In this document: piece by piece, positions 1-47,400 of the stretch
How positions within the stretch are numbered: position 1 is the first letter of the stretch
Layout of the letters: every line of letters starts with the position of its first letter
NCBI RefSeq assembly: GCF_963675165.1
Contig: NC_087380.1
Span: 6,877,571-6,941,570, forward strand
Origin: Halichondria panicea
Taxonomy: Eukaryota; Porifera; Demospongiae; Suberitida; Halichondriidae
Direction: 5' to 3'
DNA: 64,000 nucleotides
The notes under the pieces: model-generated
The model's input: only the letters and a program-made list of their open reading frames with translations
Told to the model about the DNA's origin: nothing
The model's database searches: none
Program-made: the position numbers and the translations under genes

Positions 1-744
1 AATTAATAAAAGAATCATTCTCGAGTCACAAAAGCGGCTGAAGTGTATACAATACGAATGTGTTACTTTCTTCACGTTGCATGATTAATACTTTCGGGGT
101 TTGGAGTCAAGCACATAATTATAGGTAAATTTCTTTCAAGCCGTTCGGTATGTTGATGGCTAGGAGGGTAAAAAACACAGTGTGTATTATCACAGTTATG
201 TTCAATTCTCGCTTCTATACATTGTAGGTGATATCAAGCCTCTGAATGACAGGACATCGCCGCTGTGAGACTCCAACACTACTTTTAGACAAACATTTAT
301 TGTTATTACCTTCTGTGTTTGTTGAAATGTATCATATGCACATATTGTTGTTTGGCCAACAAGCATTGAGTTGTGTGTCAAATTACCCTTATAGTGAGCA
401 ATTATCGGTAGGCTCTATAATAAATACTGTCTGGTAAAACAGCACAACTTTCGATCAATTTAATGCTTAGCTATTAAACTAATGATATTCCAAGTCTCCA
501 GTCAATAGCATATTGGGAACTGATTTTATAACGCTTAGTGTGGAGGTAGGTCAAAACCACAAAATGTTAGTAACCATCAAACAATGCCAACTGTGTGCTG
601 ATAGATGACTGTGTAGCTATCATTTTAGACTCTTTAGAAAGCACACATTCATGAATCAGAATAGCATATGATATTGGCATAAATAGTACGTGCAAAGATA
701 ATATATAGTAGGTAGAAGTCATTGCAAGTTAACAAGCTCAAAAC
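1..744. other. No recognisable gene (left edge)
   Basis: AT-rich sequence with no exon I can support. The third Death domain (two exons) expected downstream of the Ig exon at 1926-2151 is not visible here; it is either lost or lies beyond the left edge. The last 9 bases (736-744, GCTCAAAAC) are the left target duplication of the transposon that follows. Confidence 0.5.
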
Positions 745-1795
745 TAGCCTCGATTCCAGGCCGCTTGAACAAGGCGGCCTGGTATACCTTGTACAGTAGA
801 ACCTCGATTATCCGGACACCTTGGTTCCAGAAGCAGGCCGGATAAGTGAATATGCCGGATAATCGAATAGATAAACCACGCCTTGATCCACCCACTTTAT
901 TGATGAACAGCAGTGCCACATGGTTGTCTGCGCATGCGCAAAAGAAAAGCAGGCATGTCTCCATGGTAACAGCTGCAACGCGCATGCGCATTTGAGGGAC
1001 ACGCCCATTTTCTGAATTATGTAATCTGATTAAAAAGAAAACTGCCAAGCCGGATAATCGAGGTTCCGGATAATCGAGGGCCGAATAATCGAGGTTCTAC
1101 TGTATGCGCATGCGTGTACATTACCCCAAAAAGGGGGTAATCCGTGTATTTGTGGATACTGTCAGTAAAATAAACCGTATACTATTTGTATTCTGATTTT
1201 ACAGTCCGTTACATAGAAGTATTGTGCAAAGATGACTGAGTTCTTACGCCCTTTATTGTATCAAGCCAAGTCTCTACTTAACGACACCCTACACTGTAAG
1301 GCTACAGATGTTATAGGAAAGGCATGATGTGTTCCTGTGGGTCCCCTGATGAGGCTGTGGTAATATAGACCAGGCAAGTGTTCTGCTACTAAATCTTGCC
1401 TTTATGTTCGACAAGAAGTCATTGCTGAAAATAAAGAAGCTAATGATTACTCCTGAAAGCTTTTAATAAGCTTTAACTCGACACTCAGAGGTTATTCACT
1501 CAAGATCTACTGATGTATTAAAGAGTCCACCACTCTTCCTAGCTGGCAGCTCTAGCTGTCTGGGAGGCTTTCTTGAATTGTCTCTTTGATAAACAGAGCT
1601 AGAAGAAGCAACACTGCTGCAGCATAATTATTCTACTTTGATTAGTGTCTCTGAAAGCTGCCATTGTGGTCACATTGTCATACGTATTATTCCCTTTTGT
1701 AACTTTGTCTGTTTTTTATTGTTGTCAATTATTTCGCGCATGCGCATACAAGGTATACCAGGCCGCCTTGTTCAAGCGGCCTGGAATCGAGGCTA
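745..1795. mobile_element. MULE-like TIR element, TAGCCTCG family (copy 1)
   Basis: The ends are inverted repeats starting TAGCCTCGATTCCAGGCCG. Each end also folds on itself (AGGCCG...CGGCCT) and is followed by a GCGCATGCGC-type motif. The element is flanked by a perfect 9-bp duplication, GCTCAAAAC, at 736-744 and 1796-1804. The length is 1,051 bp, including a nested TA-type element at 794-1102. I see no transposase. The right 400 bp recurs inverted at 27406-27816. A 9-bp duplication fits Mutator-like or Merlin-like transposition; the superfamily is inferred. Confidence 0.85.
794..1102. mobile_element. Pogo/Tigger-like MITE nested in the MULE-like element
   Basis: The TIRs begin CAGTAGAACCTCGATTATCC at both ends (right end inverted) and are flanked by TA at 792-793 and 1103-1104. 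These termini resemble Tigger/pogo elements. It has no coding capacity (309 bp) and was inserted into the left arm of the element at 745-1795, so it is younger. Confidence 0.75.
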
Positions 1796-1925
1796 GCTCA
1801 AAACCACAAGCCAGATTGAGTGACAGGAAGCACTTCCTGTTTTTAATTAAAAAACTGCCTTGGTCGTTCGACTGACATTTAGAATAATGACAAGCCATAT
1901 AATCAATAATAATACCTATACTTAC

Positions 1926-2151
1926 TGATAAATCTCAAGCAGTGGTACACTTTGAAGGAGAACTGCTTGTTCTTGGATACTTCACAAGTGTAGAAACCAT
2001 CGCAATGATCCCTCGTCACTTTGTCCACAGTGAGTAATGACTTATCTGCCACCATCTTGCTATTCTTGGTCCACTCGAAGGAGAGGCTTGTCACACCAGG
2101 GTTAGCAAAGGGGAGGGCATCAAGAACAGCTTTCTCATTCAACTCAACTTC
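1926..2151 (-). CDS. Ig-like domain exon (type I) of left ROCO unit
   Basis: A 226-nt exon with acceptor CTCAG before GAAGTT and donor GTAAG. The translation has the Ig hallmarks: a buried Trp (FEWTKN), the D-x-G-x-Y-x-C signature (DGFYTCEVSKN) and alternating strands. The usual first-sheet Cys is absent. It follows the Roc-COR exon directly in phase (WFAK then EVELNEK). It is most similar to the exon at 54872-55097 and less to those at 7735-7960 and 42035-42260. Its Death-domain partners downstream are not found. Confidence 0.75.
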
Positions 2152-5100
2152 CTGAGAAAAGATCTGACTCACAACACATTGAACATGTATAATATAACAC
2201 ACATGACATAAAATGCATTATTTTCATGTTCCATATACATTTGCTAATACATAATATTAAGGGCTGAAGAGAAGAGGTCCCTTGATAATACTACACACAC
2301 ACAGAGGTATAAATAACACATCGTGATTGTCCTGACAAGTTGTCCTAGCAAAATACATTTTGTTCTGCCATCAGGTGATATTGGTCGGACACTAAATTAC
2401 CCATGCAATGTCCTTAGTAATTTCTAGGCTTTAGAAAAGGTAAGGTAATGCTTAGCACATAAATAGAAGCTTACCTAGTCGTCTTGTCACTCCGCTACAT
2501 AGCTATATAAATATCTAGGCCTCCTCTTGTGCAATGAACAAAGACACATGGCTGTTATGAGATCATTATTTTAGTGCGCATGCGCATCATAACTATGACC
2601 TTTGGCCTTCAATCTTTGCATGCTAGGACACTATGACCGAGCTAAATGCTCGGAAATTGACCGATGACCGACTGTTATTTATACCTCTGCACACAGTCAG
2701 CTTTACAGTATCCCTCGTGCGGATTCGCACATAATACTAAGCTAAAAATGTTTGTAGTATTATACCTTTGCAAACCAGCATTCCTGATGTGGTAGTAGAG
2801 AAACACGATCATCCCCACACTGAAAGAAAAGACTGTGACCCTCCATCAACTTGCACAAACTCGTTCCTTCAGCGTTTTGATGCTTTAGGCACTGACAATC
2901 GAATGCAATAATCGGCTCAATCTTCTTGCTAATTCCGCTCATCGCATACAGGACAGTAGTCAGCACATAGGAGCAGAGATCATGCATGTCGCAACCATAT
3001 TTTCTGGTGATTCGAATCTCGTAACAGTCGGCGTGGGCTACCAGCGTGATGTGGTGTTTCGCACTATCGACATTGAAAGAAATCAGATTTCTCTTGACAC
3101 AAGATTCTCGCAGATTCCATTTCAGCCCCAAAATTCCTTTTTGTCCCTCGGAAACCAACTTGCTGATCATGGCACAGAAGACACCAATGGGCACATAGCC
3201 AGACTCGAAGGTGATCTTGATTGGAGAGGGTGTGTTGGAGTCGATGGTTGGAGCATTTGAAAGCTCTTCCTTCGAGGCACACTCGAGGATAGCTGGCATG
3301 AAGTAGACTGGCTGGCGACCTTTACAAGTTATGGGTGCAAGGAGACTGACATGCTCAAGCAACTTCACAAGCTTGTCGACCGGGATCAATTCACCTTCCT
3401 TCACTTTTGTTTCGTTTGACTTAGAACAGCAGAGTTTAATCGTAGCAATCGAGAATTGCCCCAGTTCTTGCCACTTCTTAATCTCAGCGGCGGTGAAACG
3501 ATATTTCCTATCGGATGAGTGTAGAGATAGAAGAGGTTCGACAAAAAGGAGACTGATGCTGTTGAAGACAACATTGGGGCTGCAAATGACACGGTTTTTG
3601 AAGTAAGACTCCTTGTCCTTGATGTCAGGGTAGTAGAGAAGGGCCCCCACACACTGGTGCAAATACCTAATGGTGAACTTCACCTCCTCTTCATCCATCT
3701 GCAATTCTTTGCCGATTTTAATACACTCCTCCATCATCGCAATTTCAAACTCTTTCCTCAAGATGACCCCAAAAAAGAGCTGTACAGGGCGAATCCGGAG
3801 TTCGGCAGCTTTGAAACGCGAGTCAAACACTGTTTGAAGGTGTTCACGAATCGGATCAATGTCAGCATCTGTGCCATTGAAGTTGTCCACAGAGAAGAAG
3901 TGACTACCATCTAGGTGGCTGCTGATGACGTCACCAAAATTTGAAGTAATGGTGGATAAGGCTTTGTGTTTTTCTTTGAGTTTTGTCTGCAAATGATTTT
4001 CAGTTTCGGCTTGAATGGTAGAATCTGTGCTCAACTGATGAACAACTGCACTTGCTAGATTGGAGAGGGTTTCGTTACATTGCTTCATCTGGAGGGAAAG
4101 TTGAACAGCTTTGGGTGTGCTCCGTTTCAATCTGTTTTTGATTTCAGGAGGTAGCGTTTTCTCGAGAACTTCCACTTTGCTTTCCAATTCGGTATTCTCC
4201 TGTGGTGTGGTTGGTTTCTGCTGTTTATCAGTGGTGGCCTTCGCTTTTGCTTTTTGCTCCACATGTTTCACCAGGTTTTTTGAAAAGGAATCCAATTCAA
4301 GCTGCTTGCCAACCTCTGCCTCTAATTCGGAAAATATCTCCTTCATCTTCTGCTCAGATTCGACTTCTTGCTGCACCTCCAGAATCAGCTGTACTGCGGC
4401 TCCCAGAGTGATTTCATCTAGACTGGTGTAAACCCCCTTGAGCTTTGCCTGAACGACTTCTGCCTTAGCTTGAATTTCCAAATTGTCTTGGTAAGTGCCC
4501 ACTAGACTCACGACAGCTTGAAGATCTCGGAAATTTTCAACTTTATCGGCAATCTCCGATTCAAGATCCGAATCAACTGTGACGTAATGGCTGATGGCTG
4601 AAAGAATTTGAGAGAGGGTATCTCGAATCGTATACGTTGATTGGTAGGGGGTGATTTTGTCTTGGTCACGTTCGTAGGAAATTTCATAAAACTCGTCGAG
4701 ATCTTTAGCGAGAGGGAAGAAGGCGAGAAACATCCCTGGACCTTTGCTCAAAAATGGAAGCATCTCCACGAAGCCGGGTTGTCCACCTATGTCAATGATG
4801 TTGAGCAAAGCTTTGCCTACCAACTGTTCCATGTAGTTGCCTCGCTTGACAACATCTCGAAGGTTTTCAATGATCTTGTCGACCTTGGTTTCTGGAGCCT
4901 TTGGTTTGGCAGGTTTGCTTAATCGTTTCCGAGGAACTAGTTTTGTGCTTGCCTCTGCGGACTGAGCCTTAAAATTTTCGTTCTTGTCAACATTGGTTTC
5001 TAAACCCTGTGATTTGGGTTGTTTGCTTCCTTGCTTTTTGCTTGGATCCACTTCACCTGTGGGATGAATATCAGACTCTTCTTTGGGTTGTTTGCTTTCG

Positions 5101-8100
5101 TGCTTTTTGCTTGGATCCACTTCATCTGTGGGATGAATATCAGAATCTTCTTTTAGCTTTAAATCATCAATGGGATCATTTGTTGGAGCTAGCTGATCAG
5201 CAGATTTGACTACAGTTTTGGAAATGGCAGTTCTTAAAACTTGCTGAAGGCCAATCATGTAAGCGAAAATCAGTTGTGTTTCATTGTCAATATCTGTGGA
5301 GGCTTTGAGAATCAATTTGGAGTCACTTGACACAGCCAGGACTTGAGTACACTCGGCAAGAAGAGTGCTGCAGCGTTTTCTGTCTTGTGGTGGGATTGAT
5401 GCCAGGTTAAGTAGTTGACCCAGCAGACGTTTTCGGAAGGTGGTTTTGCCGAGCCCTGAAAGGCCGATTAGGTACAGTTTGAGATAGCGGATGTTGATGG
5501 TGTTCTCTGTATCTGTCAGCAACTCGTTCAATTTGTGTACGTACTTCAACTGCTCTTCAACAGAGACTGAATATGAAAGGTACATATGAAGTTAAAGATT
5601 TACATAGTAAGTAATAATTATATTATAACAACCATCTAAAGACATATGAGTATAGCATAATTATGGAACTTATATATAGTTGAGTATAATTATATGTATA
5701 TGGAAACTTAGGATATTGCATACTGTCAAATAGTTTTATAGGACATGTAAAACGTTTTATTGGGTAATTAGCATGTACACGCAGAAGTAATGCGATGATA
5801 TGCATTTTCTTCGAAGAAGTAACTACGATATGCTGCACATGCATGCTTATCTGTAAATCTATCGTATAGAGCGGGTACATTTCAAGGGTAAAAATGTTCA
5901 CGGAAAGACGTTTGAATGGATTTCGCAAATTATATTTTTCAGTCTTTGGCACATTGCTGCACGCGATAAGTGTACATGCTTAATATGGTATATTTTATAC
6001 CCTCGAAATATACACACTATACAGCATACAGTCAACTAGCGAGTGATTATGTATTTCAGAGGTCTTTCCAAAATTGCATGCATCTTATATAGGGCATCTT
6101 ATATAGGGCAGCCAACCTCGACAAGTCATAACACTCTATATATGAGTGTACCAGTTTTACTATATACCGCATTAAACATTACCACTATAATTATAGTCAC
6201 TGCCATTAATCACGCTACTCACCTGCTGTGTCCTTGCTTTCCTGCACTGAGGAGTCATCACTCTTGATGTACTTGTCCTCAATCTCAGCAGCAATGTCAG
6301 GACGGTTAATGGCTGGTGACCTCAGGGCTTCAACCAGATCAGACCAGGTGGGGTTGGGTGAGGACTGGAGCCATACTTCAAGCATTTTAGTGAAGCGCGC
6401 GCGATCTCCTGTGGCATGGTGATTCTTCTTAATAACCTGTATATGAAAATTCAGTAACGTTAACATATTAAGTAACGACAATTTTCCGGTTAATTAAGGA
6501 ACCCTCTAATTATGTGACGCTTGGACATTTCTCTTTACATTTTAGCACCATTATTATTGTTTTTGTGTATATAATTATTCATAAATTAGTCAATTTACAC
6601 AATACAGAGAGTCTTACAACACCTGGTATATCCAAGGCCGTATAGCAAGCGGTCAGGTTGGTCAGATTTTGGCCTGACCACTTTTTGTAGCTACGTACGC
6701 AATGATTGTCATTATTAAAAATTGCATGATGTTAAATTAGGCCTTGCCCATGATTTTTGAGCATTATGAGCCATTTCTATTAATGATTGACCATTAATTT
6801 TTATAACAAAAATTTGCGGTGGCCTGAAGGTTATACCGGTGTTGTAAGACTCATTGTATCGTGTAAATTGTAAATAAGGTGACCGTGACTAATTGTTCAT
6901 GAAACCATAGAGTGCTAGGAAACTGCATGCCCTTCAATCACCTGTAGTGTTTCGTCTGGTAGACCCAACGCGACCCCCAGCTCAAACCATTTAGCACGAA
7001 CTCTCTGCAAGACAGTGCTTATCACTGTTAGCGTGAGAGACCTTGGAAGCAAACTTAAAATAAATTCCTTCTCAATAACGTCGGCTAGGTCTCCCCTCTC
7101 GACACTGGGGCCTCTCAAAGCCTCCACCATGACCGACCAGCTCGGAGATCCCTTCTTGAACCAGGCCTCCAGCATTGCAACAAAGCACTCATCCACACGA
7201 CCATTGTGGGACATTTCTATACTCTGCATAAAAAAGAACAAATCAATTAAGAGATAGCTAGGGGAAAAAATGTATAGAATTTGCTTTCCCCCACAGACGA
7301 ATTGTATAGTACATATAAAATTATTCAGATATGACACTTTAAGTAAAGCGTGCACCGGGTGAACCTAGCATATATATATATAACACAGTGACAAATACTC
7401 ACTTTAATAGTTCTCTCATCCACATCCAAGTTAATGGCCAGGTGGTACCACTTTGTACGAGCATCTGAAGTAGCATATTTGACAGTCTTGAGAGTTATGT
7501 CACCACCTGTAGCTGTGGCCTCACCTGGACAAAGGGGGAATGTGGTTTGGTAATGAAAAACAAGTAGCAGCAAACAACATGTACATGCATGTACAAGGAA
7601 TACTTATATTATTGTCAATGTGGCTATATACTAGGTATGACGTACGTATCTGAGGAAAATTAGCGATTATATAGGCACACTGAATTTGCATATACTGTAC
7701 ATTTAGAATCATGACAGCCATTGTCAATACTTACTGATACTTTTCAAGCAGTGGTGCACTTTGAAGCAGAGCTCCTTGTTCTTGGATACTTCACAAGTGT
7801 AGAACCCATCGCAATTATCCCTCGTCACTTTATCCACAGTGAGCTCGTTATCTGATCCACCCGCCACCTTATTGCCTTTCCTGGTCCACTTGAAGGAGAG
7901 GTCATCAGGGTCAGCAAATGGCAGTGCTACAAGAACAGCTTCCTCATTCAATTTAACTTCCTGCACGTGAAATTATCTGATTCACAACACATTGAACATG
8001 TATAACCCACATGACATAAAAGGGATTTTTTTCATGCTCAGTGTATACAATACATAATACCAGGAGCACATTACAGAAGGAGCGTCTTACCTCGGGAATC

Positions 8101-11100
8101 GCATCTCGTGCAAGTTTGCAAAGCATGACCTTATATGCAAAACCGCTAGAGTGGGTGATAATCATCTGCGGGCGAATGCTAATTGAGCTAATGGTGCACT
8201 TTTACCAGGTCAACAAAATAAAAAGCTATATATACAGCTAGCTAGTTAGCTATAGGCCTATAGTAGTAAGCTCTCTCTTCTAAAAACCCCAGTAAGACGC
8301 CCACTGCAAAAACAAAACACCTAGTATGTGTTAGTCTAGGTCTAGTAAACTTTCTCTATACAAAGTAATTGGATATGCTCTTCTTTTAGATTTTTCTGTA
8401 CCTCACCAATGACAGTCTCTTCCATGTGATGTATACTAACATCATCAAAGACATACGTAGCTATTATTAGCTCTCAACCTACTCTCCTGCTGCTTGCACT
8501 ACATACAAAATTTGTTCATAATGATATTCACAGGCTGACCGCGGTCTGTAATTTTTGTACATAGTACTGACACACTTTTCTTATAATTAAGCAATGCGGC
8601 GTTTAGGAAAACACACGAGATGCAATTTCTGAACCCATGCAGAGTTAGACGCTCATTCTATAATGCCCTCCTGATAATATTTAGCCTCGATCTCAGGCCG
8701 CACTTCCTCGAAGAGTGGGCCTGGTATCGACTGCTTGCGCATGCACTAATCTTTCGTCAGTATCTGGCGGATCCGGATAACAACATTTATGGTCAGTAAA
8801 ACAATGACGTCACAACAAACGGAAGTGGATTAAAGGATAGAAGGTTCCATTGAAGGTTTCTAGCCCATCTGATAGTAGTCTGATAGCTACCCTTAGCCTG
8901 CTATGTTAACAAAAGACTCACAGCCAGCAACAGTGTGGATGACAATCGTCTGAACGGAGTGAAAGCTGACAAGAGCCTATATGGACAGGCCACGCCCATC
9001 AAATACTAACTTGGTGAAAAGTCTATACTATACTACTGCTACTGATTCTATCAGAAATCAAATAGCTGTATAACAAACCTACACAGCTCTGTCTCTAGCT
9101 AGCTAGCTCTAATACGTAGCTCTGTGTATGACTTTCAATACTTTGTCCGAATATTTTTGCGATAAATTCAGTATTATAGGACATTTACGAAGAAAATATC
9201 CAATAATTTTGCGCATGCGCAAGCAGGCCTTCTCTCGTTCTCTCAGGGGAGGCCAGTGAAGGAGGCTAGATAATATTAAGCTAAAAATAATGTTCATATC
9301 GTAATTGCATGTATTATATACCTTTCCAAACCAACATTCCTGATGTGGTGGCAGAATAACACGACCGTCCTCACACTGAAAGAAAGGACTGCGACCCTCC
9401 ATCAACTTGCACAAACTCGTTTCTTCAACGTTCTGATGTTTTGGGCACTGACAATCGAATGCAACAATCGGCCTGATCTTCTTGCTAATTCCGCTCATCA
9501 CATTATACAGGACGGTAGTCAGCACATAGGAGCAAAGATCATGCATGTCACAATCTTCACGTCTTGTGAGTCGAATCTCGTAACAGTCGGCGTGGGCTAC
9601 AAGCGTAATATAATGTTTGGCACTACCAACTTCGAAAGAGACCAGATTTCTCATGACACGAGATTCTCGCAGATTCCATTTCAGCCCCAAAATTCCTTTT
9701 TGTACCTCGGAAACCAACTTGCTAATCATGGCACAGAAGACACCAATGGGCACATAGCCAGACTCGAAGGTAATCTTGATTGGAGAGGGTGTGTTGGAAT
9801 CAATGGCTGGAGCATTTGAAAGCTCTTCCTTTGAGGCACACTTGAGGATAGCTGGCATGAAGTAGACTGGCTGGCGACCTTTACCAACTATGGGTGCAAG
9901 GAGACTGACATGCTCAAGCAACTTCACAAGCTTGTCGACCGGGATCAATTCACCTTCCCTCACTTTTGCCTTGTTTGACTTGGAACAGCAGCGTTTAATC
10001 GTAGTAATCGAGAAGTGCCCAAATTTTTGCCAATTATTGATCTCGTCAGCGGTGAAACGATACTTCCTATCGGATGAGTGTAGAGATAGAAGAGATTCGA
10101 CAATCAGGAGACGGATGCTGTTGAAGACAACATTGGGGCTGCAGATGACACGGTTTTTGAAGTAAGACTCTTTGTCATGGATGTCAGGGTAGTAGAGAAG
10201 GGCCCCCACACACTGGTGCAAATACCAAATAGTGAACTTCACCTCCTCTTCATCCATCTTCAATGCTTTGCCAATCTGAATACACTCATCCATCGTCGCA
10301 ATTTCAAACTCTTTCCTCAGAATGACACCAAAAAGGAGCTGTACAGGGCGAATTTGGAGTTCGGCAGCTTTGAAAAACGAGTCAAACACTGTTTGAAGGT
10401 GTTCACGAATCGGATCAATGTCAGCATCTGTGCCACTGAAGTTGTCCACGGAGAAGAAGTGACTGTCATCTGGGTGGTTGATTATGTCCCCAAAATGTGA
10501 GGTAATGGTGGATAAGGCTTCGTGTTTCTCTTGGAGTTTTGACTGCAAACACTTTTCAGTATCGGCTTGAATGGTAGAAGCTGTGCTCAACTGATGAACG
10601 ACTGCACTTGCTATCTTGGAGAGGGTTTCGTTACATTGCTTCAACTGGAGCAAAAGTTGAACAGCTTTGGGTGTGCTCTGTTTCAATTTGTTTTTGATTT
10701 CAGGAGGTAGCGTTTTCTCGAGAACTTCCACTTGCAATTCGGTATCCTCTTGTGGTGTGGTTGGTTTCTGCTGTTTTTCAGTGGTGGCCTTCGCTTTTGC
10801 TATTTGCTCCACATGTTCTACAAGGTCTTTTGAAAAGGAATCCAATTCAAGTTGCTTGCCAACCTCTGCTTCTAATTCAAAAAAAATATCCTCCACCTTC
10901 TGCTCAGATTCGACTTCTTGCTGCACCTCCAGAATCAGCTGTATTGCGGCTCCCAGGGTGTTTTCGTCAAGTCCGGGGTAATCCCCCTTGAGCTTTGCCT
11001 GAACAACTTCTGCCTTGGCTTGAATTTCCAACTTGTCTTGGTAAGTGCCCACTAGACTCACGACAGCTTGAAGATCTCGGGAATGTACTTTATCAGCAAT

Positions 11101-11891
11101 CTCGGAATGAAGATCCGAATCAACATGGCTGATGGCTGAAAGAATTTGGGAGAGGGTCTCTCGAATCGTATACTTTGCCTGGTAGGGGGTGATTTTGTCT
11201 TGGTCACGTTTGTAGGAAACTTCATAGAGCTCGTCGAGATCTTTATCGAGAGGGAAGAAGGCGAGAAACATCCCTGGGCCCTTGCTCAATAATGGAAGCA
11301 TCTCCATGAAGCCGGGTTGTCCACCTATGTCAATGATGTTGAGCAAAACTGTGCCTACCAACTGTTCCTTGTAATTGCCTCGCTTGACAATATCTCGAAG
11401 GTTTTCAATGATCTTGTCGATCTTGGTTTCTGGAGCCTTTAGTTTGGCCGGCCTGCTTGCTCCTTCCTGAGGAACTTGAGAATCTTCTTTTGTCTTTGAA
11501 TCAATAATAGGATCATTCGTTGGATCAGCAGACTCGACTACTTTGGAAATGGCAGCATTTAGAACTTGCTGAAAGTCAATTAAGTAATCAAAAATCAGTT
11601 GTGCTTCGTTGTCAATATCTGTGGAGGCTTTGACAATCAATTTGGAGTCACTTGACACAGCCAGGACTTGATTACACTCGGCAAGAAGAGTGCTGCAGCG
11701 TTCTCTGTCTTGTGGTGGGATTGATGCCAGGTTACGTAGGTGACCCAGCAGACGTTTTCGGAAGGTGGTTTTGCCGAGCCCTGAAAGTCCAATTAGGTAC
11801 AGTTTGAGGTAACGGAGGTTGATGGTTTTCTCTGTATCTGCCAGCAACTCTTTCAGCTTGTGTACGTACTTCAACTGCTCATCAACAGAGG
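1926..11891 (-). CDS. Fused tandem ROCO gene: Roc-COR / Ig / Death / Death / Roc-COR / Ig
   Basis: Seven minus-strand exons join with GT-AG borders and matching phases: 9322-11891, 7735-7960, 7403-7524, 6942-7223, 6223-6436, 2766-5566 and 1926-2151. Together they give 2,147 codons without a stop. The product would have two Roc-COR GTPase modules linked by an Ig domain and two Death domains. ROCO proteins with Death domains (DAPK1 is the known example) are signalling switches, so an intracellular scaffold or cell-death role is inferred. The fusion arises because exon 6942-7223 combines the end of one gene's third Death domain with the start of the next gene's first. The 5' C2/Death exons expected upstream of 11891 are missing, replaced by transposons; an in-frame ATG at 11910 sits just above the acceptor. 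The 3' end is not seen. It could instead be two genes or a decaying fusion. Confidence 0.6.
2302..2692. mobile_element. Inverted-repeat element in intron
   Basis: The TIRs are CAGAGGTATAAATAACA (left) and its complement (right), inserted in a CA-rich stretch. The paralogous intron at 55220-55270 has only the CA repeat and serves as an empty site. The target duplication is obscured by the CA repeat. No ORF. Confidence 0.65.
2766..5566 (-). CDS. Roc-COR GTPase exon (left unit, copy 1)
   Basis: One 2,801-nt exon (933 codons plus 2 nt). In order: an amphipathic N-terminus (EEQLKYVHKLNELL); P-loop G1 GLSGLGKTTFRKRL at about 5450-5480; an acidic/lysine-rich linker with a doubled peptide (DIHPTDEVDPSKK then DIHPTGEVDPSKK); G3 DIGGQPG at about 4774-4797; a G4-like VGTYQD; a long coiled-coil insert (about 190 residues); the FFSVDN segment; and a COR-like region (YLHQCVGALLYYPD, VICSPNVVF) with a conserved Cys/His-rich tail ending QECWFAK. 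The G1, G3 and COR order is diagnostic of ROCO proteins. The exon joins the upstream Death domain (exon 6223-6436, phase 1) and the downstream Ig exon. Open throughout. Confidence 0.85.
5864..6024. mobile_element. TA-type MITE (CCGTATAGCGGG family), degraded
   Basis: The left end reads CGTATAGAGCGGGTA and the right end is a complementary CCCTCGAAATATACACACTATAC. Versions of it sit at the same place in the paralogous introns (45847-46061, 49154-49369), so it predates the gene duplications. Confidence 0.55.
6223..6436 (-). CDS. Death domain, second-half exon
   Basis: A 214-nt exon. The translation contains ARFTKMLEVWLQSS, PTWSDLVEALRSP and DIAAEIEDKY, matching helices 3-6 of a Death domain (conserved W in TW-x-x-LV-x-AL). 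It is phase 0 at entry and ends in phase 1, so the last G completes the first codon of the Roc exon. The immediately following intron block is almost identical in all six copies of this exon. Confidence 0.8.
6583..6890. repeat. Foldback block in the Death-domain intron
   Basis: A left arm (TTTACACAATACAGAGAGTC, ...ACACCTGGTATA) and a complementary right arm (TACCGGTGTTGTAAGACTC...) enclose about 200 bp. It is present at the same intron position in the other copies (46510-48802, 49890-50062, 59903-60046, 61912-62046), so it is an old element inherited by gene duplication. Confidence 0.6.
6942..7223 (-). CDS. Fused Death-domain exon (C-terminal half of one gene + N-terminal half of the next)
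   Basis: A 282-nt exon, phase 0 at both ends, 94 codons with no stop. The first part (CFVAMLEAWFKKG, SWSVMVEALRGP, DLADVIEKEF) is the end of the third Death domain, which in the copies at 41256 and 53794 is followed by a stop and the gene end. The second part (SLTLTVISTVLQRVRAKW, LGLPDETLQ) is the start of the first Death domain of another copy. Between them about 15 nt (ILSLLPR) derive from the old intron end upstream of a CCAAG acceptor. The donor is GTGATTG, as in other copies. This is the joint that fuses two ROCO genes. Confidence 0.75.
7403..7524 (-). CDS. Death domain, first-half exon (third-domain type)
   Basis: A 122-nt exon, acceptor GTCCAG and donor GTGAGT. It encodes ATATGGDITLKTVK, ARTKWYHLAINLDVDERTIK, which are helices 1-2 of a Death domain (the W-x-x-L-A-x-x-L pattern). 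It enters in phase 1 from the Ig exon and leaves at a codon boundary. Confidence 0.75.
7735..7960 (-). CDS. Ig-like domain exon (type II)
   Basis: A 226-nt exon with the same borders and phase as the other Ig exons. Key elements are FKWTRKGNKVAGG, LTVDKVTRD and DGFYTCEVSKN. It is closest to the exon at 42035-42260 and differs from the type I exons (1926-2151 and 54872-55097) in the C-D region. Confidence 0.78.
7961..8681. other. Intron sequence without recognised gene
   Basis: Part of the 1.36-kb intron between the Roc-COR exon 9322-11891 and the Ig exon. AT-rich, no exon-like segment. The last 9 bases (8673-8681, GATAATATT) are a transposon target duplication. Confidence 0.5.
8682..9268. 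mobile_element. MULE-like TIR element, TAGCCTCG family (copy 2), intronic
   Basis: It starts TAGCCTCGATCTCAGGCCG and ends in a degenerate ...GGAGGCTA. A perfect 9-bp duplication, GATAATATT, lies at 8673-8681 and 9269-9277. The TGCTTGCGCATGC motif follows both ends, inverted. The length is 587 bp. It lies in the intron just downstream (minus strand) of the Roc-COR donor at 9321, so transcription crosses it. No ORF of note. Confidence 0.8.
9322..11891 (-). CDS. Roc-COR GTPase exon (left unit, copy 2)
   Basis: A 2,570-nt exon (856 codons plus 2 nt), the shortest of the four close paralogues because the lysine/acid-rich linker between G1 and G3 is reduced (KTKEDSQVPQEGAS). It keeps GLSGLGKTTFRKRL, DIGGQPGF, VGTYQD, the coiled-coil insert, FFSVDNF, the COR-like segment and the QECWFGK end before donor GTATAT. 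The reading frame runs past the donor to 9109, into the transposon. An in-frame ATG lies 19 nt above the acceptor at 11910. Confidence 0.85.
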
Positions 11892-24564: not shown

Positions 24565-24699
24565 CTGTATGTAGCAAACAGGTTAAAATCCACATGGCTA
24601 TATAGTGTTGTGGAAAAAGCAGCATAACTAACTTTAACAATTAGTGGAACCAACTTTTAAGCAATTAGTATATACATGCATGTACACACATACACTGAC

Positions 24700-26860
24700 C
24701 TTTCCCAGCCACACTTGCTGATATTTCCTGAGAGTGACTGGCTTGTACCCACAGAGAAACTGGACCCACAAATCCTTAGCAAGGACACACAGATTATCCA
24801 TACATCCACTCGTCTGGTGATCAGGGCACGGACATTGGAATGCAATTTGTGGAATCAACCGTGGGTAAAGGCTTTTGAGCGTGTAGAGCATCACCGAGAG
24901 AACGTAGGTACAAAGGTCATGGAGAGAGACTCGAGAGAAGCTGCGAACAATTCGAATTTCATAGCATCGAGCATGTGCTAGTAGGGTGATCTTGTTTGAT
25001 TTATTTAAATAGAAAGAGACGCAGTTTTGTTTGACACCATCTTCAACAAACTCCCACGTCAATCCAAGAATTCCATGAGGACCTTGGGAAACTAGTCGAG
25101 TGATGAGCCCACAGAAGACTCCCGTTGGTACGTAACCAAAGCTGAATGTGATGTGGAGTGGTTCTGGGTTGTTGGCATCTGGTTGAGGTGGGTTCGCCAG
25201 CTCGTCTTGTGAAGCACAGTCCAATATAGCCGGCATTAGGTATGTGATTCTAGTGACGTCCGGATCGTTGCCATCTTTGTGAACAATTTCAGAGAGAAGG
25301 TTGAGATATTGCAGCAGTATGATGAGATGCTTGGCTGGGATAATCTCTCCTTCCTTGAGCAGCTTAGTAACCTCTGGACCAGTACAGTACTTGATAATGG
25401 CTTCCAGTGAAAACTGCCCCATTTTTATCAACTCTTCTCGCTCAAACTCAGTGACGTGGCCTTCAGAATGGAGGATGCGTAAAGCTACAAGGATCAGTTG
25501 GCTGATGCTAGTAAAGATCACTTCAGGGGAGCAGAACACGTGATTCTTGAGCCAGTCATCGGGCACATTTGTGTAATGCATGAGCGAGCCTATGCTGTGA
25601 AGATACCTTAGGCAGAATTTGGTATCTTCTTCATCCATCTCCAATATTCTCCCAATTTTCAGACAGTCTTTCATCGACACGATTGAGTACTCCATCCGCA
25701 GTAGTGTGCCCAGTAGGAGCCATTTCGGTTTGATGGGCAGAGATGCATCCTTGAAGTGAGAGGTGAAAACCTTACTCATGAAATCACGAATCGGGGCAAT
25801 GTCAGACTGTTCGGTTCCAGCGAAGTTGTTCATGGCAAAAAATGAAGATTCAGAATCTGACGGAGGTAATACCAGGATCTTGGAAAACTTCTGAGTGGTC
25901 GCTTTTAGAGCATCGCTGACCTGCTTGATTTTTTCTTTTGGATTTTCCAACTTATCTACGTGAGTACCGATCAAAGCTGCTACAGGATGAATCTGTTGAA
26001 ACTTTTCAAACTTCTCACCCAATTTGGAAGTTTTGATCAAATCATCCTCTCGAGAGACATGATGGACACAGGCAATTGAAGAGAGGATTTGAGAGACTGT
26101 GGCTTTCACTGTGTGCGCAGCTTTGTATGGGGTGACAATGGTGTCGTCTCGACTGAAGGGAATATCGTAGGGCTCGTCCAGCTGCTTGCTCAAATTCAAA
26201 AATACTAGATACAAGGCTGGACCATTGCTCACGGCTGGTAGCATTTCCAAGAAGCCTGGCTGACCTCCGACATTCTTGATGTGTAACAAGGTGCTGCCAA
26301 GACGACTGGCCATTTGGGAGTAGTTTCCGTTCTTTATCAGCTTATGCAGTCGATCCCTCATTTTGGACCAGCTTATTCCGTTTGTCGGTGTTTTCTTGTC
26401 TTTCAGTGCGTGTTTCTTCCTGAGGCTTTAGTATATGCCTTTCAGTAGAAAGTTTGACTTTTTTTTGAGTTTCGGATGACTGTTTGATCAGCTTTTCAAT
26501 CACAGGCTGCCTTGTCGTCTTTTCTTCGCTTGGTACATTGTCGATCTTGTCGCTGTACATGTAGCCAAATAGGACCTTTGCTTCTTCGTTCTCGTCTCCC
26601 GAACAAACCCATTCTGTGGCATCTTTGTTTGTGTAGGCGACAACTTGACGGCAATTGGCGAGTAGTGTACTTGCCTAGTTTTGCTTTTTCTTTATCAGAA
26701 GTGATGTTTACGATATCTTTCAGCAAACGGCTAAGGGTTGTTGTTTTCCCCACGGATGGTGGCCCGACAAGAAGGAGTCCAAGATTTTGCATAGAGACAG
26801 CTTCTTCGTCAGTCATAAGATCATCCAATTTCTTAAGATACTGCTCTTGCTCACTAATCA
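24700..26860 (-). pseudogene. Diverged Roc-COR GTPase exon (frameshifted)
   Basis: Segment 1 (26860-26676) holds QYLKKLDDLMTDEEAVS and the P-loop. Segment 2 (about 26675-26360) reads STLLANCRQVVAYTN, GDENEEAKVLFGYMYSDK and a charged linker. Segment 3 (26359-24700) reads MRDRLHKLIKNG, NVGGQPGFLEMLP, IGTHVDKLE, FFAMNNFAG, CLRYLHSIGSLMHYTNVPDDW, VFCSPEVIF and the COR tail. The three segments lie in different frames. Confidence 0.65.
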
Positions 26861-27405
26861 CTGTATGCATAATTAGAAGTAGGAAGGCTTAATAATAATG
26901 GTACATATAATTATGTAAAGATAATTACATGCATCAGGATTACGAAACAAACATGTAAACATGCATGTATAGGCATCACTGTAAACTATAGAGTCTAGAA
27001 ACACTGCAACTACTGGCATAACTATAGCAACATAATTTTGTGTATATAGGTGGGGCTCTGTGTCAATTAGTTTTGTATTAATTAACTCTCTTCATAATTT
27101 ATGGATCCATCGACATATCTTAACATGAGACACAGGGCCATATCTTAATGAGACTGTGAAGACTACCATTATGTCCTGGATTTAGAGGTTCTGTTCTGTG
27201 TCCCGTCCGGAAATTGCTATTACCTGAAATTTCAAGGTTGCTGATCCTGAGCTGGGATAATGTAGTCTAAAGAAGCTCAAAAATACTGAAGCTATGCTTA
27301 AATATGAACAGAATTCAGTTTATTAAACTATGCTGTCTGTCTATCACTACGATAAAAAAATGTTTTGCCGTTTTTGTGGGTGGGGCTCTCCAGCATGATC
27401 ATACT
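26861..27405. other. No recognised gene
   Basis: A roughly 545-bp AT-rich spacer upstream of the diverged ROCO gene. I see no C2 or Death exon here and no element ends. Confidence 0.45.
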
Positions 27406-41255: not shown

Positions 41256-41432
41256 CTAGTAAGTGTTCATGAATTTCCTCTCGATATTGTTGGCTAGGGT
41301 CCCTCCCTCAACCCCACGGCCTCTCAAAGCCTCCACCATGACCGACCAGCTCGGAGATCCCTTCTTGAACCACGCCTCCAGCATTGCAACAAAACACTTC
41401 TCCGTGTTATTGTAGTTAGTCTCTCTGATACT
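41256..41432 (-). CDS. Third Death domain, second-half exon with stop
   Basis: Acceptor TATGCAG. Reads SIRETNYNNTEKCFVAMLEAW, SWSVMVEALRG, LANNIERKF, then MNTY and stop TAG. This shows where the gene normally ends, in contrast to the fused exon 6942-7223. Confidence 0.8.
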   Translation of the reverse strand, partial: SIRETNYNNTEKCFVAMLEAWFKKGSPSWSVMVEALRGRGVEGGTLANNIERKFMNTY

Positions 41433-44400
41433 CTGCATAAACAACGAGGTATATATAGAAGATACTATATAGGGTTGATACTATATAGAGAGCAATTAGC
41501 TATAATTATTAGTTATAATGGCTGCATGTTAGGTAATTACAGACCCCCCCTGATCAATTCACTAAGACAGACTATAATAAATTTAATACAGTTGATTTGG
41601 ATAATATACTTCACACAACCCAAGCATGCATGCAATACTTACATCAATAGTTCCACCGTCCACATCCAAGTTAATAGCCAGGTGGTACCACTTTGCACGA
41701 GCATCCCAAGTAGCATCTTTGACAGTCTTGAGAGTTATGTCACCACCTGTAGCTGTGGCCTCACCTGGACAAAGGGGAACTTGGTTTGGTAATGAAAAAC
41801 AAGTAGCAAAATGCAACAGCCAGAACATGTAAGGAATACTTATACAGTGTACTGTTGTCAAAGCAGACGTGGCTACAGGTATGATGTACGTACGTATCTT
41901 GTAAATAATTGAGGTGAAATAGGCACATTAACTCACTGTTGTCAAATGTGACTTATCTTCTAATTATTATACACACTAAATTTGCATATACCGTACATCT
42001 ATAGAATACTACTAGAACCATTGTCAATACTTACTGATACTTTTCAAGCAGTGGTGCACTTTGAAGCAGAGCTGCTTGTTCTTGGATACTTCACAAGTGT
42101 AGAACCCATCGCAATGATCCCTCGTCACTTCGTCCACAGTGAGCTCGTTATCTGATCCACCCGCCACCTTATTGCCTTTCCTGGTCCACTTGAAGGAGAG
42201 GTCATCAGGGTCAGCAAATGGCAGAGCTTTCAGAACAGCTGCCTCATTCAATTTAACTTCCTGCATGTGGGAAATGATCTGATTCACTACACATTGAATA
42301 TGTATATAACCCACATGACGTAAAAGAACTTTTTTCATGCTACGTATGCAAAAATAATGTTCGATCATAATTGTAATTAATTATACCTTTGCAAACCAAC
42401 ATTCCTGATGTGGTGGCAGAGAAACACGATCATCCCCACACTGAAAGAAAGGACTGCGACCCTCCATCAACTTGCACAAACTCGTTTCTTCAGCGTTTTG
42501 ATGCTTTGGGCACTGACAATCGAATGCAATAATCGGCTCGATTTTCTTGCTAATTCCACTCATCACATACAGGACGGTAGTCAGCACATAGGAGCAGAGA
42601 TCATGCATGTCACAATCATCTTTTCTGGTGATTCGAGTCTCGTAACAGTCGGCGTGGGCTACCAGCGTGATGTGGTGTTTGGCACTATCGACATTGAAAG
42701 AAACCAGATTTCTCATGACACGAGATTCTCGCAGATTCCATTCCATCCCCAAAATGTCATATTGTCCCTCGGAAACCAACTTGCTGATCATGGCACAGAA
42801 GACACCAATGGGCACATAGCCAGACTTGAAGGTGATCTTGATTGGAGAGGGTGTGTTGGAGTCGATGGCTGGAGCATTTGAAAGCTCATCCTTTGAGGCA
42901 CATTCGAGGATAGCTGGCATGAAGTAGAGTGGCTCTCGGCGACCTTTACCAAATATGGGTGCAAGGAGACTGACATGCTCAAGCAACTTCACAAGCTTGT
43001 CGACCGGGATCAAATCACCTTCCTTCACTTTTGCCTTGTTTGACTTGGAGCAGCAGCGTTTAATCATAGTAATCGAGAATTGCCCAAGTTCTTGCCACTT
43101 CTTGATATCGGCGGCGGTGAATTGAGACGACCAATCACATGAGTGTAGAGATAGAAGAGATTCGACAATCAGGAGACTGATGCTGTTGAAGACAACATTG
43201 GGACTGCAGATGACACGGTTTTTGAAGTAAGACTCCTTGTCCTTGATGTCAGGGTAGTAGAGAAGGGCCCCCACACACTGGTGCAAATACCAAATGGTGA
43301 ACTTCACCTCCTCTTCATCCATCTTCAATGCTTTGCCGATCTGAATACACTCTTCCATCGTTGCAATTTCAAATTCTTTTCTCAGAATGACCCCAAAAAG
43401 GAGCTGTACAGGGCGAATCGGGAGATTGGCATCTTCAAAAAACAAGTCAAACACTGTTTGAAGGTGTTCACGAATTGGATCAATGTCAGCATCTTTGCCA
43501 CTGAAGTTGTCCACAGAAAAGAAGTGACTGTCATCTGGGTGGTTGATGATGTCGTCAAAATGTGAGGTAATGGTGCGTAAGGCTTCGTGTTTCTCTTGGA
43601 GTTTTGTCTTCAAACGCTTTTCAGTTTCGGCTTGAATGGTAGAATCTGTGCTCAACTGTTGGACAACAGCACTTGCTAGCTTGGAGAGGGTTTCGTTACA
43701 TTGCTTCAACTGGAGCAAAAGTTGAACAGCTTTGGGTGCGCTCGGTTTCAATCTGTTTTTGACTTCAGTAGGTAGAGTTTTCTCGAGGATTTCCACTTTG
43801 CTTCGCAATTCGGTATCCTCTCGTGGTGTGGTTGGTTTCTGCTGTTTTTCAGTGGTAGCCTTCACTTTTGCTTTTTGCTCCACATGTTCCACCAGGTCTT
43901 TTGAAAACGAGTCCAATTCAAGTTGCTTGCCAACCTCTGCCTCTAGTTTGGAAAATATCTCCTCCACCTTCTGCTCATTTTCACTTTCTTGCTGCACCTC
44001 CAGAATTAGCTGTATTGCAGCGCCCTGGGTGTTGGGGTCAAAACTGGGGTAATCCCCCTTGAGCTTTGACTGAATGACTTCTGCCTTGGCTTGAATTTCC
44101 AACTTGTCTTGGTAAGTGCCCACTAGACTCACGACAGCTTGAAGATCTCGGAAATGTTCAACTTTATCTGCAATCTCGGAATCAAAATCCGAATCAACTG
44201 TGACGTGATGGCTGATGGCTGAAAGAATTTGGGAGAGGGTCTCTCGAATCGTATACTTTGCTTGGTACGGTGTGATTTTGTCTTGGTCACGTTCGTAGGA
44301 AACTTCATAAAGCTCGTCGAGATCTTTATTGAGAGGGAAGAAAGCGAGAAACATCCCTGGGCCTTTGCTCAAAAATGGAAGCATCTCCAAAAAGGCAGGC

Positions 44401-47400
44401 TGTCCACCTATGTCGATGATGTTGAGCAAAGCTTTGCCCACCAACTGTTCCATGTAATTGCCGCGCTTGACAATATCTCGAAGGTTTTCAATGATCTTGT
44501 CGACCTTAGTTTCTGGAGCCTTTGGTTTGGCTGGCTTGCTTGCTCCTTCCTGGGGAACTTGCTTTGTGCTTGCCTCTGCGGGCTGAGCTTCGTTTGTGGC
44601 AACATCGGTTTCTAGAGCCTGTGATTTGGGTTGTTTGCTTCCTTGCTCTTTGCTTGAATCCACTTCATCTGTGGGAGCAGTATCCGAATCTTCTTTTAGC
44701 CTTAAATCATTAATGGAATCATTCGTTGCATCAGCCGCAGATTCGACTACAGTTTTGGAAATGGCGGCTTTTACAACTTGCTGAAGGCCAATCATGTAAG
44801 CGAAAATCAGTTGTGTTTCATTTTCAATATCTGTGGAGGATTTGAGAATCAATTTGGAGTCACTTGACACAGCCAGGACTTGATTACACTCGGCAAGAAG
44901 AGTACTGCAGCGTTCTCTGTCTTGTGGTGGGATTGATGCCAGGTTAAGTAGGTGACCCAGCAGACGTTTTCGGAAGGTGGTTTTGCCAAGCCCTGAAAGG
45001 CCAATTAGGTACAGTTTGAGGTAGCGGAGGTTGATGGTGTTCTTCTTATCTGTCAGCAACTCGTTCAGCTTGTGTAAGTATTTCAACTGCTCTTCAACAG
45101 AGGCTGGAAATGTAGGTAAGTGATTTATTAATGAAAACACTGCTGGTGCTGATGCCTCGGTGGAGGTGTCAAAGCTACTAGCTATTATAGCATTATATAC
45201 ACACATTATAATTATCATGATAAACATTTTTATAAATTTTGCTGCATACAGAATCACAGGGAAACTCAACGAGTGGGTAATGATCGACCATGATTGTTGT
45301 TAAAAATGAATGGCTGCATCAGCAGAGCCTTGCAGCTCTCTTCTCACTCTTGCAGCTATCAATAGCTTAACTTTTATAGTGCAGAGCTAACTACTAAGTA
45401 GAGTAGCAACACTTCATGGACAAGTTATGCTACGCACTCTTCTGAAAAGGCTGCAATGGCATTCTAAGTAAGCAAAAGTAGGCATAACTCGAGAACGAAG
45501 CATTATTATTTTTGCAAATCTATGAATTAAAATCCAAGAAAACGTTACTAGAAGCCTATAGAAACTCTTAATTCATCCTTGAGCAGCTGTAGCAGTCTAC
45601 ACGCACAGACACACACACAAAAACACTACTGTATACCTCGCTTGCGAATGCGCACCGAGGCATAACAACCATCTGAGGAGAAAAAAGACATACAAGTAGA
45701 GTGTATATTGCATATATACTGTCAAAATAGTTTTCATTGGAAGTTTTGGGTAATCCGATACATATACACACAAATTAGGGCATAAGCAATAAAATTATGT
45801 TCTTCGAAGTGAGAAAGAAACTTTAACACTGCACATGCATAAATATCTGTATAGCGGGTATATTTCAAGGGTATAAATTTGCGTGGAAAGAACGTTAGAA
45901 TAGATTTAATTCGCAGATTTAATTTTTTGGGGACTGTCAGTCTTTGGCACATTGCTGCACGCGATAGTAAATATGCGTCGGTAAAAATATTCGCAATACA
46001 TGCTTAATCAGCAAAAACCGGTAAAATGTATACCCTCGAAATAATTATTCCCACTATACAGACAACTTACCGCATTAAACATTACCACTATAATTATAGT
46101 CACTGCCATTAGTCACGCTACTCACCTGCTGTGTCCTTGCTTTTCTGCACTGAGAAGTCATCACTCTTGATGTACTTGCCCTCAATCTCATCAGCAATGT
46201 CAGGACGGCCAATGATTGATGACCTCAGGGCTTTAACCAGATCAGACCAGGTGGGGTTGAGTGAGGACTGAAGCCACACTTCAAGTAGTTTAGTGAAGCG
46301 ATCTCCTGTGATACCGTGGTTGTTCTTCTGAATAGCCTGTATGTATAGTGAAAATTCATAATTATTCGTTAATGTTAGACATGTTAAGCAACTGTACAAT
46401 TTTTCCGTTGGGTATATAGTTTAAAAAATATGCGATGCTTGGACAATTCATCTTTATACTTTAGCACCATTATTATTGTTTGTGCGTATATAATTATATT
46501 CATAGTCTAGCAATTGGCCACGGTCACCTTATTTACAATTTACACGATACAGAGAGTCTTAAACACCGGTATATACATGTACCGTAGAAACTGGATTATT
46601 AGCGCATGCGCCCAGGGGGTCAATAGCAGAGCTCTATAAACGATTATATTCGAGAATGCGCATAATGCAGTAATTTTCGAGCCCCACCCATGCAGTAACC
46701 GGATGTCTCTGTGATGAAAGGTGACTCGCAACTGGCTAGAAAATGACCAAGCACGTACCCAAACTCACTGGATCTATAAATTATGTTACAGTTCATTTTA
46801 CAACATTTATATTTACCGATAACTGGACAAAAAAGTCCAAGTCCACCTCATATATGTCTCGCATTGTTTCAGCGTGCCCGGAGAGTCCTTCCAGATGGAT
46901 ATCCATGCAGCTATATAGCTAGCCTCGATTCCAGGCCGCTCTCAATTGAGAAAGACGGCCTGGTATACACTGTCTGCGCATGCGTTAATTGCCCCCCAAG
47001 AATCTTGGGGGTCGAGATATCTTAGTAAATTACTGTATATTTACAATGATGTCATTGCACAAATCAGCAAAATAACACAGCTACTTACAACATTTATGAC
47101 CTAGACTAGTGAGTAGTTTTGTTGTGATGGCTTGTACTTCTGTTCTGCTCTTGCTCAAGCTCTCTCCAGTGTTGAAAAGTCACTTCTTTTGTACTGTGGT
47201 AGAGTGGTGGGCGTTTTTCTGTCAGTACCTACCGGCTCTGGCAAGTCTACTTGCTTCCAGACGCTTGTTTGATGCCATTTGAGTAAGATCAGTGCTCCTC
47301 GTATGAGCCTAGAGTTGTGATGGCGATTTCTCTCTCTTGACACTAATAGTTTAATCAACCACGTGGGTGACCATAGTACAAAAGATAAATTACTATTAAA

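What the first reader, a model, noticed from the sequence alone, without database searches (positions are those of the whole stretch)
1926..11891. Two ROCO genes fused in frame into one possible 2,100-residue protein
Seven exons over 10 kb join in phase with no stop: Roc-COR, Ig, Death, Death, Roc-COR, Ig. The fusion point is inside one exon (6942-7223), where the terminal Death exon of one gene runs straight into the initial Death exon of the next; the two other copies of that terminal exon (41256, 53794) have a stop there. A protein with two Roc-COR GTPase modules would be unusual, since known ROCO proteins have one. A tandem GTPase could act as an intramolecular dimer; that part is inference.
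Basis: partly seen in the sequence, partly recalled or inferred. Interest (0 to 1): 0.8.

Follow-up and report, generated by a model that had tools for sequence, protein, structure and literature searches.

The report
Hybrid exon joining two ROCO genes
In an unnamed animal genome two neighbouring ROCO GTPase genes are joined in frame through one hybrid Death-domain exon, which two other loci share and which looks conserved as coding sequence, so a protein with two Roc-COR modules is possible here, but nothing yet shows that it is made.

Summary
Seven exons join with canonical splice sites into 2,147 codons without a stop. Exon 7223-6942 is a hybrid: second half of one Death domain, about 18 nt of former intron, first half of the next. 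Two corrections matter. First, the model is open at both ends: it begins at a splice acceptor, and left of the window it continues for three more exons (2,351 codons, 0 stops). Second, the hybrid exon is not unique: the same breakpoint occurs at three places. It differs by 3.5-5% between them, against 15-31% in the upstream intron. At the other two places it leads to a Death-like exon, and no Roc-COR exon was found beyond it. So it is an established Death-Death tail; only at the finding locus does the chain reach a second Roc-COR exon, through an intron resembling the family's Death-to-Roc-COR introns. Both Roc-COR exons are intact and constrained. A two-ROCO protein is the most economical reading (about 0.45); two adjacent genes remain possible. 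There is no transcript evidence.

The parts
9322..11891 (-). Roc-COR exon 1 (RC1), 2,570 nt; acceptor CTTTCAG|CC (phase 1), donor AAAG|GTATAT (phase 0)
   Evidence: ROCO assignment by profile comparison
7735..7960 (-). Ig-like exon 1; Ala at the usual B-strand cysteine (position recalled from the Ig fold)
   Evidence: Ig_3 E 7.9e-5, below cut-off
7403..7524 (-). first half of Death domain 1 (DDa)
6942..7223 (-). hybrid exon: second half of Death 1 (to about 7060), about 18 nt of former intron (7059-7042), first half of Death 2; the old acceptor AG is shifted by one base
6223..6436 (-). second half of Death domain 2 (DDb); if not spliced, the donor GTGAGTAG brings a stop at once
5567..6222 (-). 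intron DDb to RC2, 656 nt; 5' part and 3' end resemble the corresponding introns of paralogs; one AATAAA at 5761
2766..5566 (-). Roc-COR exon 2 (RC2), 2,801 nt
1926..2151 (-). Ig-like exon 2; donor ATCA|GTAAGT leads to further exons outside the window (L001)

Best explanation
A deletion once joined the last coding exon of a ROCO gene, just before its stop, to the acceptor region of the first-half Death exon of the next gene downstream. This made one hybrid exon with no stop. SHOWN: the hybrid exon exists at three places with the same breakpoint, is open and free of indels, and is conserved against the intron upstream of it, so it is most likely a coding exon that gives the proteins a Death-Death tail. 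SHOWN at this locus: the exons after it are those of the N-terminal end of another ROCO gene (DDb, intron, Roc-COR), in phase and without stops. INFERRED: at least part of the transcripts run through and encode a protein of more than 2,350 residues, Roc-COR - Ig - Death - Death - Roc-COR - Ig - Death - Death - (Death). INFERRED mechanism: two covalently linked Roc-COR modules could meet as an intramolecular pair in place of a nucleotide-controlled dimer, while several Death domains per chain would raise the avidity of Death-fold assembly.
For: Seven exons join to 2,147 and ten to 2,351 codons, 0 stops. Of the 17 places that match the left half at 60% identity or more, 3 carry the hybrid, with the same breakpoint. 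Hybrid exon divergence 14/282, 13/282 and 10/282 with 0 indels, against 44/140, 40/127 and 20/134 with 35-71 gap columns in the upstream intron; right part alone 3/117, 6/117 and 3/117 (Fisher p 7e-4 or less). dN/dS 0.28-0.34 over the hybrid exon, from 10-14 changes per pair. The old acceptor CAG reads CAA; using the AG one base on, in the family's phase, meets a stop after four codons. The DDb-RC2 intron matches DDb-to-Roc-COR introns of paralogs in its 5' part, and its 3' end matches sequence just before Roc-COR in others. RC1 and RC2: pairwise dN/dS 0.33-0.47 in 15 comparisons of six copies; lineage-private pN/pS 0.36 (RC1) and 0.47 (RC2, the highest of the six), below neutral expectation at p 0.003 and 0.018. 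RC1 and RC2 starts lie 6.3 kb apart against 12.8-33.2 kb for the other nine neighbouring pairs of close copies between C4:6.85 and 7.03 Mb. An independent hybrid of DDb with a following first-half Death exon, joined differently, is open at C4:5913352, so such exon fusions recur in the family.
Against: No transcript, peptide or second individual was available. No Roc-COR exon was found after the hybrid exon at the two other loci. The first 36 nt past the hybrid exon's donor differ as little as the exon (2/36, 2/35, 1/35), so low divergence alone does not mark the exon end. No single paralog matched both ends of the DDb-RC2 intron. No spliced retrocopy of the DDb-RC2 junction: of 113 matches the two that ran well across it were read; one is a chance extension through a stop, the other is the DDb-Death hybrid at C4:5913352. 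RC2 has an in-frame ATG 17-19 nt before its exon and an AATAAA lies in the intron. The 5' end of gene 1 was not found: my Death queries gave no - strand match in the 8 kb upstream of RC1.
Confidence: 0.45

Rival explanations
1. Two adjacent single-ROCO genes. Gene 1 (RC1) ends with the Death-Death tail, through the stop in the unspliced DDb donor (GTGAGTAG) or the stop 8 codons past the hybrid exon, with polyadenylation in the intron. Gene 2 starts from its own promoter in the DDb-RC2 intron at the in-frame ATG before 5566.
For: The C14 copy of the hybrid exon belongs to a gene that ends in a Death-like exon with a stop, and one Roc-COR exon was found there. In-frame ATG before RC2. AATAAA at 5761.
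Against: The DDb-RC2 intron resembles the family's DDb-to-Roc-COR introns. The ATG is present in 4 of the 13 distinct paralogs whose start could be read, one of them (L010) with Death exons upstream, so it is not diagnostic. C14, which shares the ATG, has Death-like half-exons 6.7-10.4 kb upstream, although these could belong to another gene. A 1-nt deletion within 30 nt past the donor in C14 and in one initial Death exon (50 kb copy) suggests that the VIEGHAVS-stop reading is not constrained.
Confidence: 0.38
2. The hybrid exon is coding in the three genes, but at this locus the second Roc-COR is no longer expressed because everything upstream of its first Death half-exon was deleted; it is a young relic.
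For: The stretch upstream of gene 2's initial Death exon is missing at the fusion; no first exon or promoter was located in any copy. 3 of the 15 close Roc-COR loci (80% identity or more) carry a stop inside the match, so decay does occur.
Against: RC2 is open over 933 codons. 25 of its 40 private changes are nonsynonymous, fewer than the neutral expectation (p 0.018).
Confidence: 0.13
3. Assembly artefact: a collapsed or mis-joined repeat near 7060.
For: The region is a tandem array of similar genes, the kind of place where assemblies fail.
Against: No N in the window. The same breakpoint occurs at three loci on two contigs, 92-94% identical.
Confidence: 0.04

Closest known systems
Animal ROCO proteins (LRRK2, DAPK1, MFHAS1; placozoan ROCOs with Death, CARD, LRR and TPR domains)
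   Same: Roc P-loop, DxxGQ motif and COR in one block; Death domains beside Roc-COR as in DAPK1 (recalled) and placozoan ROCOs (PMC4104024, passages seen)
   Different: possible second complete Roc-COR; Ig-like exon without the B-strand cysteine; Death domains on both sides; no kinase or LRR seen in the exons examined
Trichoplax ROCO proteins with a Ras-like domain before Roc (PMC4104024, passages seen)
   Same: two GTP-binding domains in one predicted polypeptide, for which that review proposes a division of labour
   Different: there the extra domain is Ras-like; here the repeat is a whole Roc-COR-Ig-Death unit
Chlorobium tepidum Roco monomer-dimer cycle (PMC5714945, abstract and outline seen; PMC6337361, passages seen)
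   Same: COR-mediated dimerisation is the process that a covalent tandem would replace
   Different: a single Roc-COR per chain, dimerisation in trans
Amphimedon Death/TRADD-N proteins (PMC8195603, passages seen)
   Same: lineage-specific expansion with 1-3 N-terminal Death-like domains in a non-bilaterian animal
   Different: NCOA6-clade TRADD-N proteins, not ROCO

Membership tests
ROCO (Roc-COR) proteins | G1/P-loop GxxxxGK[ST] | tested here: met
   GLSGLGKT in RC1 and RC2; G34, G39, K40 invariant in the 26 aligned sequences
ROCO (Roc-COR) proteins | G3 DxxGQ | tested here: met
   DIGGQP in all 14 members of A1
ROCO (Roc-COR) proteins | G4 [TN]KxD | tested here: inconclusive
   TYQD in the five close copies aligned, TFKD in the nine more distant ones; effect on nucleotide binding not known
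ROCO (Roc-COR) proteins | COR domain directly after Roc | tested here: met
   No direct Pfam hit in RC1 or RC2. A1 against A3: 100% probability, E 7.7e-92 over 692 columns; 8 of 8 A3 members hit COR-A, best E 1.3e-8 (the one shown in full is below the cut-off), 4 of 8 hit Roc. A1 against A2: E 1.2e-18 over the COR part. The wider profile A4, which includes A3 and three of the four A2 members, hits LRRK2 at E 1.7e-5.
ROCO (Roc-COR) proteins | Roc-COR fold | tested here: inconclusive
   The only model had mean pLDDT 42.9; the second job was interrupted and the tool then switched off
ROCO (Roc-COR) proteins | GTP binding, hydrolysis, dimerisation | not testable with these tools
   needs biochemistry
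Tandem ROCO (two Roc-COR in one protein) | one open, in-phase exon chain through both modules | tested here: met
Tandem ROCO (two Roc-COR in one protein) | one mRNA that contains both modules | not testable with these tools
   no transcript data held; no spliced retrocopy found
Death domain (PF00531) | profile match over the cut-off | tested here: met
   55.1 bits against cut-off 22.6, two stretches, in the joined exons; the single exons stay below it
Immunoglobulin domain | profile match over the cut-off | tested here: not met
   Ig_3 23.5 and 20.2 bits against cut-off 30: Ig-like only

The most novel reading that the evidence does not exclude
A natural covalent tandem ROCO: two complete Roc-COR modules with four or five Death domains in one chain of about 2,450 residues. 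It arose by an exon-fusing deletion between neighbours of a fast-duplicating array and is kept under selection, so that unequal crossing-over can add whole Roc-COR-Ig-Death units in frame.
Probability: 0.4. Interest if true: 0.68.

Novelty: new variant of a known kind. Interest (0 to 1): 0.5.

Why it matters
ROCO proteins are thought to cycle between monomer and dimer during GTP turnover. A chain that carries two Roc-COR modules would be a natural test of what happens when that step is made intramolecular. Even if the two genes stay separate, the hybrid exon is a clear example of how a tandem array of Death-ROCO genes makes new domain architectures: former intron becomes coding, the new exon stays open and is copied to other loci, and the same kind of fusion has happened more than once in the family.

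Tried and rejected
A long open frame of 2,394 aa at C1:205417 looked like a second tandem case; most of the stretch read is a run of N. The C10 frames with two COR-A matches looked like tandem Roc-COR precedents; the frame read has one Roc and two COR-A stretches. The in-frame ATG before RC2 was first taken as a sign of an independent gene; L010 shares it and has Death exons upstream, so it does not decide. A match across the DDb-RC2 junction at C1:1895322 looked like a spliced copy; its left part is a chance extension through a stop. A second such row, C4:5913098, proved to be DDb running on into a first-half Death exon, not into Roc-COR. The structure model was too poor to search with; no fold search was run. 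The 5' exon of gene 1 was sought by comparing 12-21 kb of the window with the C14 upstream region; beyond the first 0.2 kb only short or repeat-like matches were shared. COX1 and ATP-synthase c searches did not place the organism. Paper searches showed no paper on two Roc-COR modules in one protein in their listings; one search returned nothing. This is not proof of absence.

Full report
WHAT IS THERE. On the - strand of the window seven exons follow one another with AG acceptors, GT donors and agreeing phases: 11891-9322 (RC1), 7960-7735 (Ig-like), 7524-7403 (Death first half, DDa), 7223-6942 (hybrid), 6436-6223 (Death second half, DDb), 5566-2766 (RC2) and 2151-1926 (Ig-like). Joined, they give 2,147 codons and no stop. 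The first base, 11891, follows an acceptor, so the model has no start. To the left of the window the same order continues: DDa (C4:6876108-6875987), a second copy of the hybrid exon (6875829-6875548) and DDb (6873831-6873624). Ten exons give 2,351 codons without a stop. A further Death-like exon follows at about 6872510 (Pfam Death E 0.0016, below its cut-off).

DOMAINS. The joined DDa + hybrid + DDb exons hold two Death domains (PF00531, 55.1 bits against a cut-off of 22.6). The Ig exons match Ig_3 only below its cut-off. Pfam does not see Roc or COR in RC1 or RC2 (1 of the 14 members of the alignment hits Roc at E 0.0024). The assignment rests on the P-loop, on DxxGQ, and on profile comparison with eight Roc-COR proteins of the same genome that match COR-A (100% probability, E 7.7e-92, 692 columns) and with four that match more clearly (E 1.2e-18 over the COR part). 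The profile of RC1 and its 13 relatives alone finds no ROCO structure up to E 10. A profile of 26 sequences hits LRRK2 (E 1.7e-5), but it contains the clearer members, so it is not independent. The G4 motif reads TYQD in the five close copies aligned and TFKD in the nine others. The one structure model was poor (mean pLDDT 42.9).

THE HYBRID EXON. Aligned with four unfused terminal exons and five initial Death exons, it follows the terminal exons up to about 7060, just before the place where the ones at 41256 and 53794 stop. About 18 nt (7059-7042) then resemble the 3' end of the intron before an initial Death exon, and the rest is that exon. The former acceptor CAG reads CAA; the next AG ends one base later (7042), and a join there in the family's phase meets a stop after four codons. 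The same breakpoint is present at three places: the finding, C4:6875829-6875548 and C14:1243919-1243638. Of the 17 places that match the left half at 60% identity or more, 3 have the right half in the same frame and 14 do not; four of those 14 were read as DNA. One search scored 150 of 481 candidates, so this is a lower bound. It also lists three places on C6 (4980158, 4814936, 5641412) that span both halves at only 32-38% identity. Two of these were read and do carry a second half followed by a first half of Death in one frame. A closer case is C4:5913352: there DDb runs on, through about 40 residues that have no counterpart in either exon and are probably former intron, into the first half of the next Death domain, with a different joint. 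So hybrid Death-half exons have arisen more than once.

CONSTRAINT. Between the three copies the hybrid exon differs at 14/282, 13/282 and 10/282 sites with no indel. The upstream intron differs at 44/140, 40/127 and 20/134 sites with 35-71 gap columns. The part from 7058 to 6942 differs at 3/117, 6/117 and 3/117 sites. Against a simple reading, the first 36 nt past the donor are as similar as the exon (2/36, 2/35, 1/35), though with a 1-nt deletion in C14; and the DDa exon differs more (8, 16 and 12 of 120). dN/dS over the hybrid exon is 0.28-0.34 from few changes. RC1 and RC2 are constrained: pairwise dN/dS 0.33-0.47 over 15 pairs of six copies; private pN/pS 0.36 and 0.47 against 0.12-0.36 in the other four, both below neutral expectation (p 0.003 and 0.018). 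RC2 is the least constrained of the six.

WHAT FOLLOWS THE HYBRID EXON. On C14 the gene reads Roc-COR, Ig, Death, Death and then an exon with a stop that resembles the Death-like exon of the left copy; no Roc-COR follows in the 5 kb read. Death-like half-exons lie 6.7-10.4 kb upstream of its Roc-COR. The copy left of the window also runs into that Death-like exon, and no Roc-COR exon was found in the 14 kb read beyond its DDb. One 42-residue match there (E 0.006) corresponds to sequence just past a Roc-COR exon and may be the trace of a lost one. At the finding locus the first 58-236 nt of the 656-nt DDb-to-RC2 intron match the DDb-to-Roc-COR introns of RC3, RC4, C4c, L010, L016 and L017. Its last 26-56 nt (7 of them exon) match the sequence before Roc-COR in RC1, C14 and L011, and RC1's own upstream sequence matches RC4, C4c, L010, L012 and L017. 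No single paralog matched both ends. RC1 and RC2 starts are 6.3 kb apart; the other nine neighbouring pairs of close copies between C4:6.85 and 7.03 Mb are 12.8-33.2 kb apart (one search scored 52 of 357 candidates, and the more distant locus at window 24682-26882 is not counted). A deletion of several kb between two tandem genes explains this.

ONE PROTEIN OR TWO GENES. For one protein: open phase throughout, an intron of the family's kind, RC2 under constraint with the stretch upstream of its first Death half-exon gone. For two genes: an in-frame ATG just before RC2, an AATAAA in the intron, stops just past the donors if splicing fails, and single Roc-COR exons at the other two places. The ATG is weak evidence: 4 of the 13 distinct paralogs whose start could be read have it, one of them (L010) with Death exons upstream. 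Five loci fetched for that comparison (L011, L013, L019-L021) gave no readable start and were dropped from this count. I put the tandem protein at about 0.45, two genes at 0.38, a silent second module at 0.13 and an assembly error at 0.04.

MECHANISM. ROCO proteins dimerise through COR and change between dimer and monomer with the nucleotide (PMC5714945, abstract; PMC6337361, passages). A chain with two Roc-COR modules could form that pair within itself. Several Death domains per chain would favour Death-fold assembly. Both steps are inference.

RELATION TO THE KNOWN. Multiple ROCO genes with Death and CARD domains are described in Trichoplax, at least three of them with an extra Ras-like domain before Roc (PMC4104024, passages), so two GTP-binding domains in one ROCO protein are not new. 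Exon shuffling in ROCO genes is described in brown algae (PMC11378527, passages). My searches listed no paper on two Roc-COR modules in one protein; only listings and passages were seen.

Noticed in passing
L002 (C10:4289000-4294500), 2-3724 +: One frame of more than 1,240 aa with one Roc and two COR-A stretches; the COR-A and Roc searches list two further places of the same pattern (C10:4391630-4394818, 4436218-4439409) and one with the two COR-A matches in separate frames (C10:4334707-4337785).
   Followed up: partly
L048 (C4:5912900-5913500, -): Another hybrid Death exon, made independently: DDb runs on into the first half of the next Death domain in one open frame.
   Followed up: partly
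window 46121-50296 and 59531-62279; C4:6859688-6865605: Death half-exon pairs repeated two or three times in front of Roc-COR exons; where looked at, module boundaries are phase 1, so whole Death modules could be added or lost in frame.
   Followed up: partly
window 1926-2151, 7735-7960, about 42027-42269 and 54864-55100: The Ig-like exons have Ala where the B-strand cysteine is usual, as expected for a cytosolic Ig-like domain.
   Followed up: no
window 24682-26882 (-): Another, more distant Roc-COR locus (about 41% identity, COR-A 29.2 bits), matched in several frames.
   Followed up: no
whole genome G000: 60 COR-A matches and 150 scored matches to the hybrid Death exon, both lower bounds: a strongly expanded ROCO and Death repertoire.
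   Followed up: no
L025, L032 and other C1/C3 Roc-COR paralogs: Long T-T-A-S-K-S-D repeats between Roc and COR, of very different length among copies.
   Followed up: no
G000:C1:5280527-5280718: COX1-like fragment with two TGA codons on a nuclear contig, probably a mitochondrial insert.
   Followed up: no
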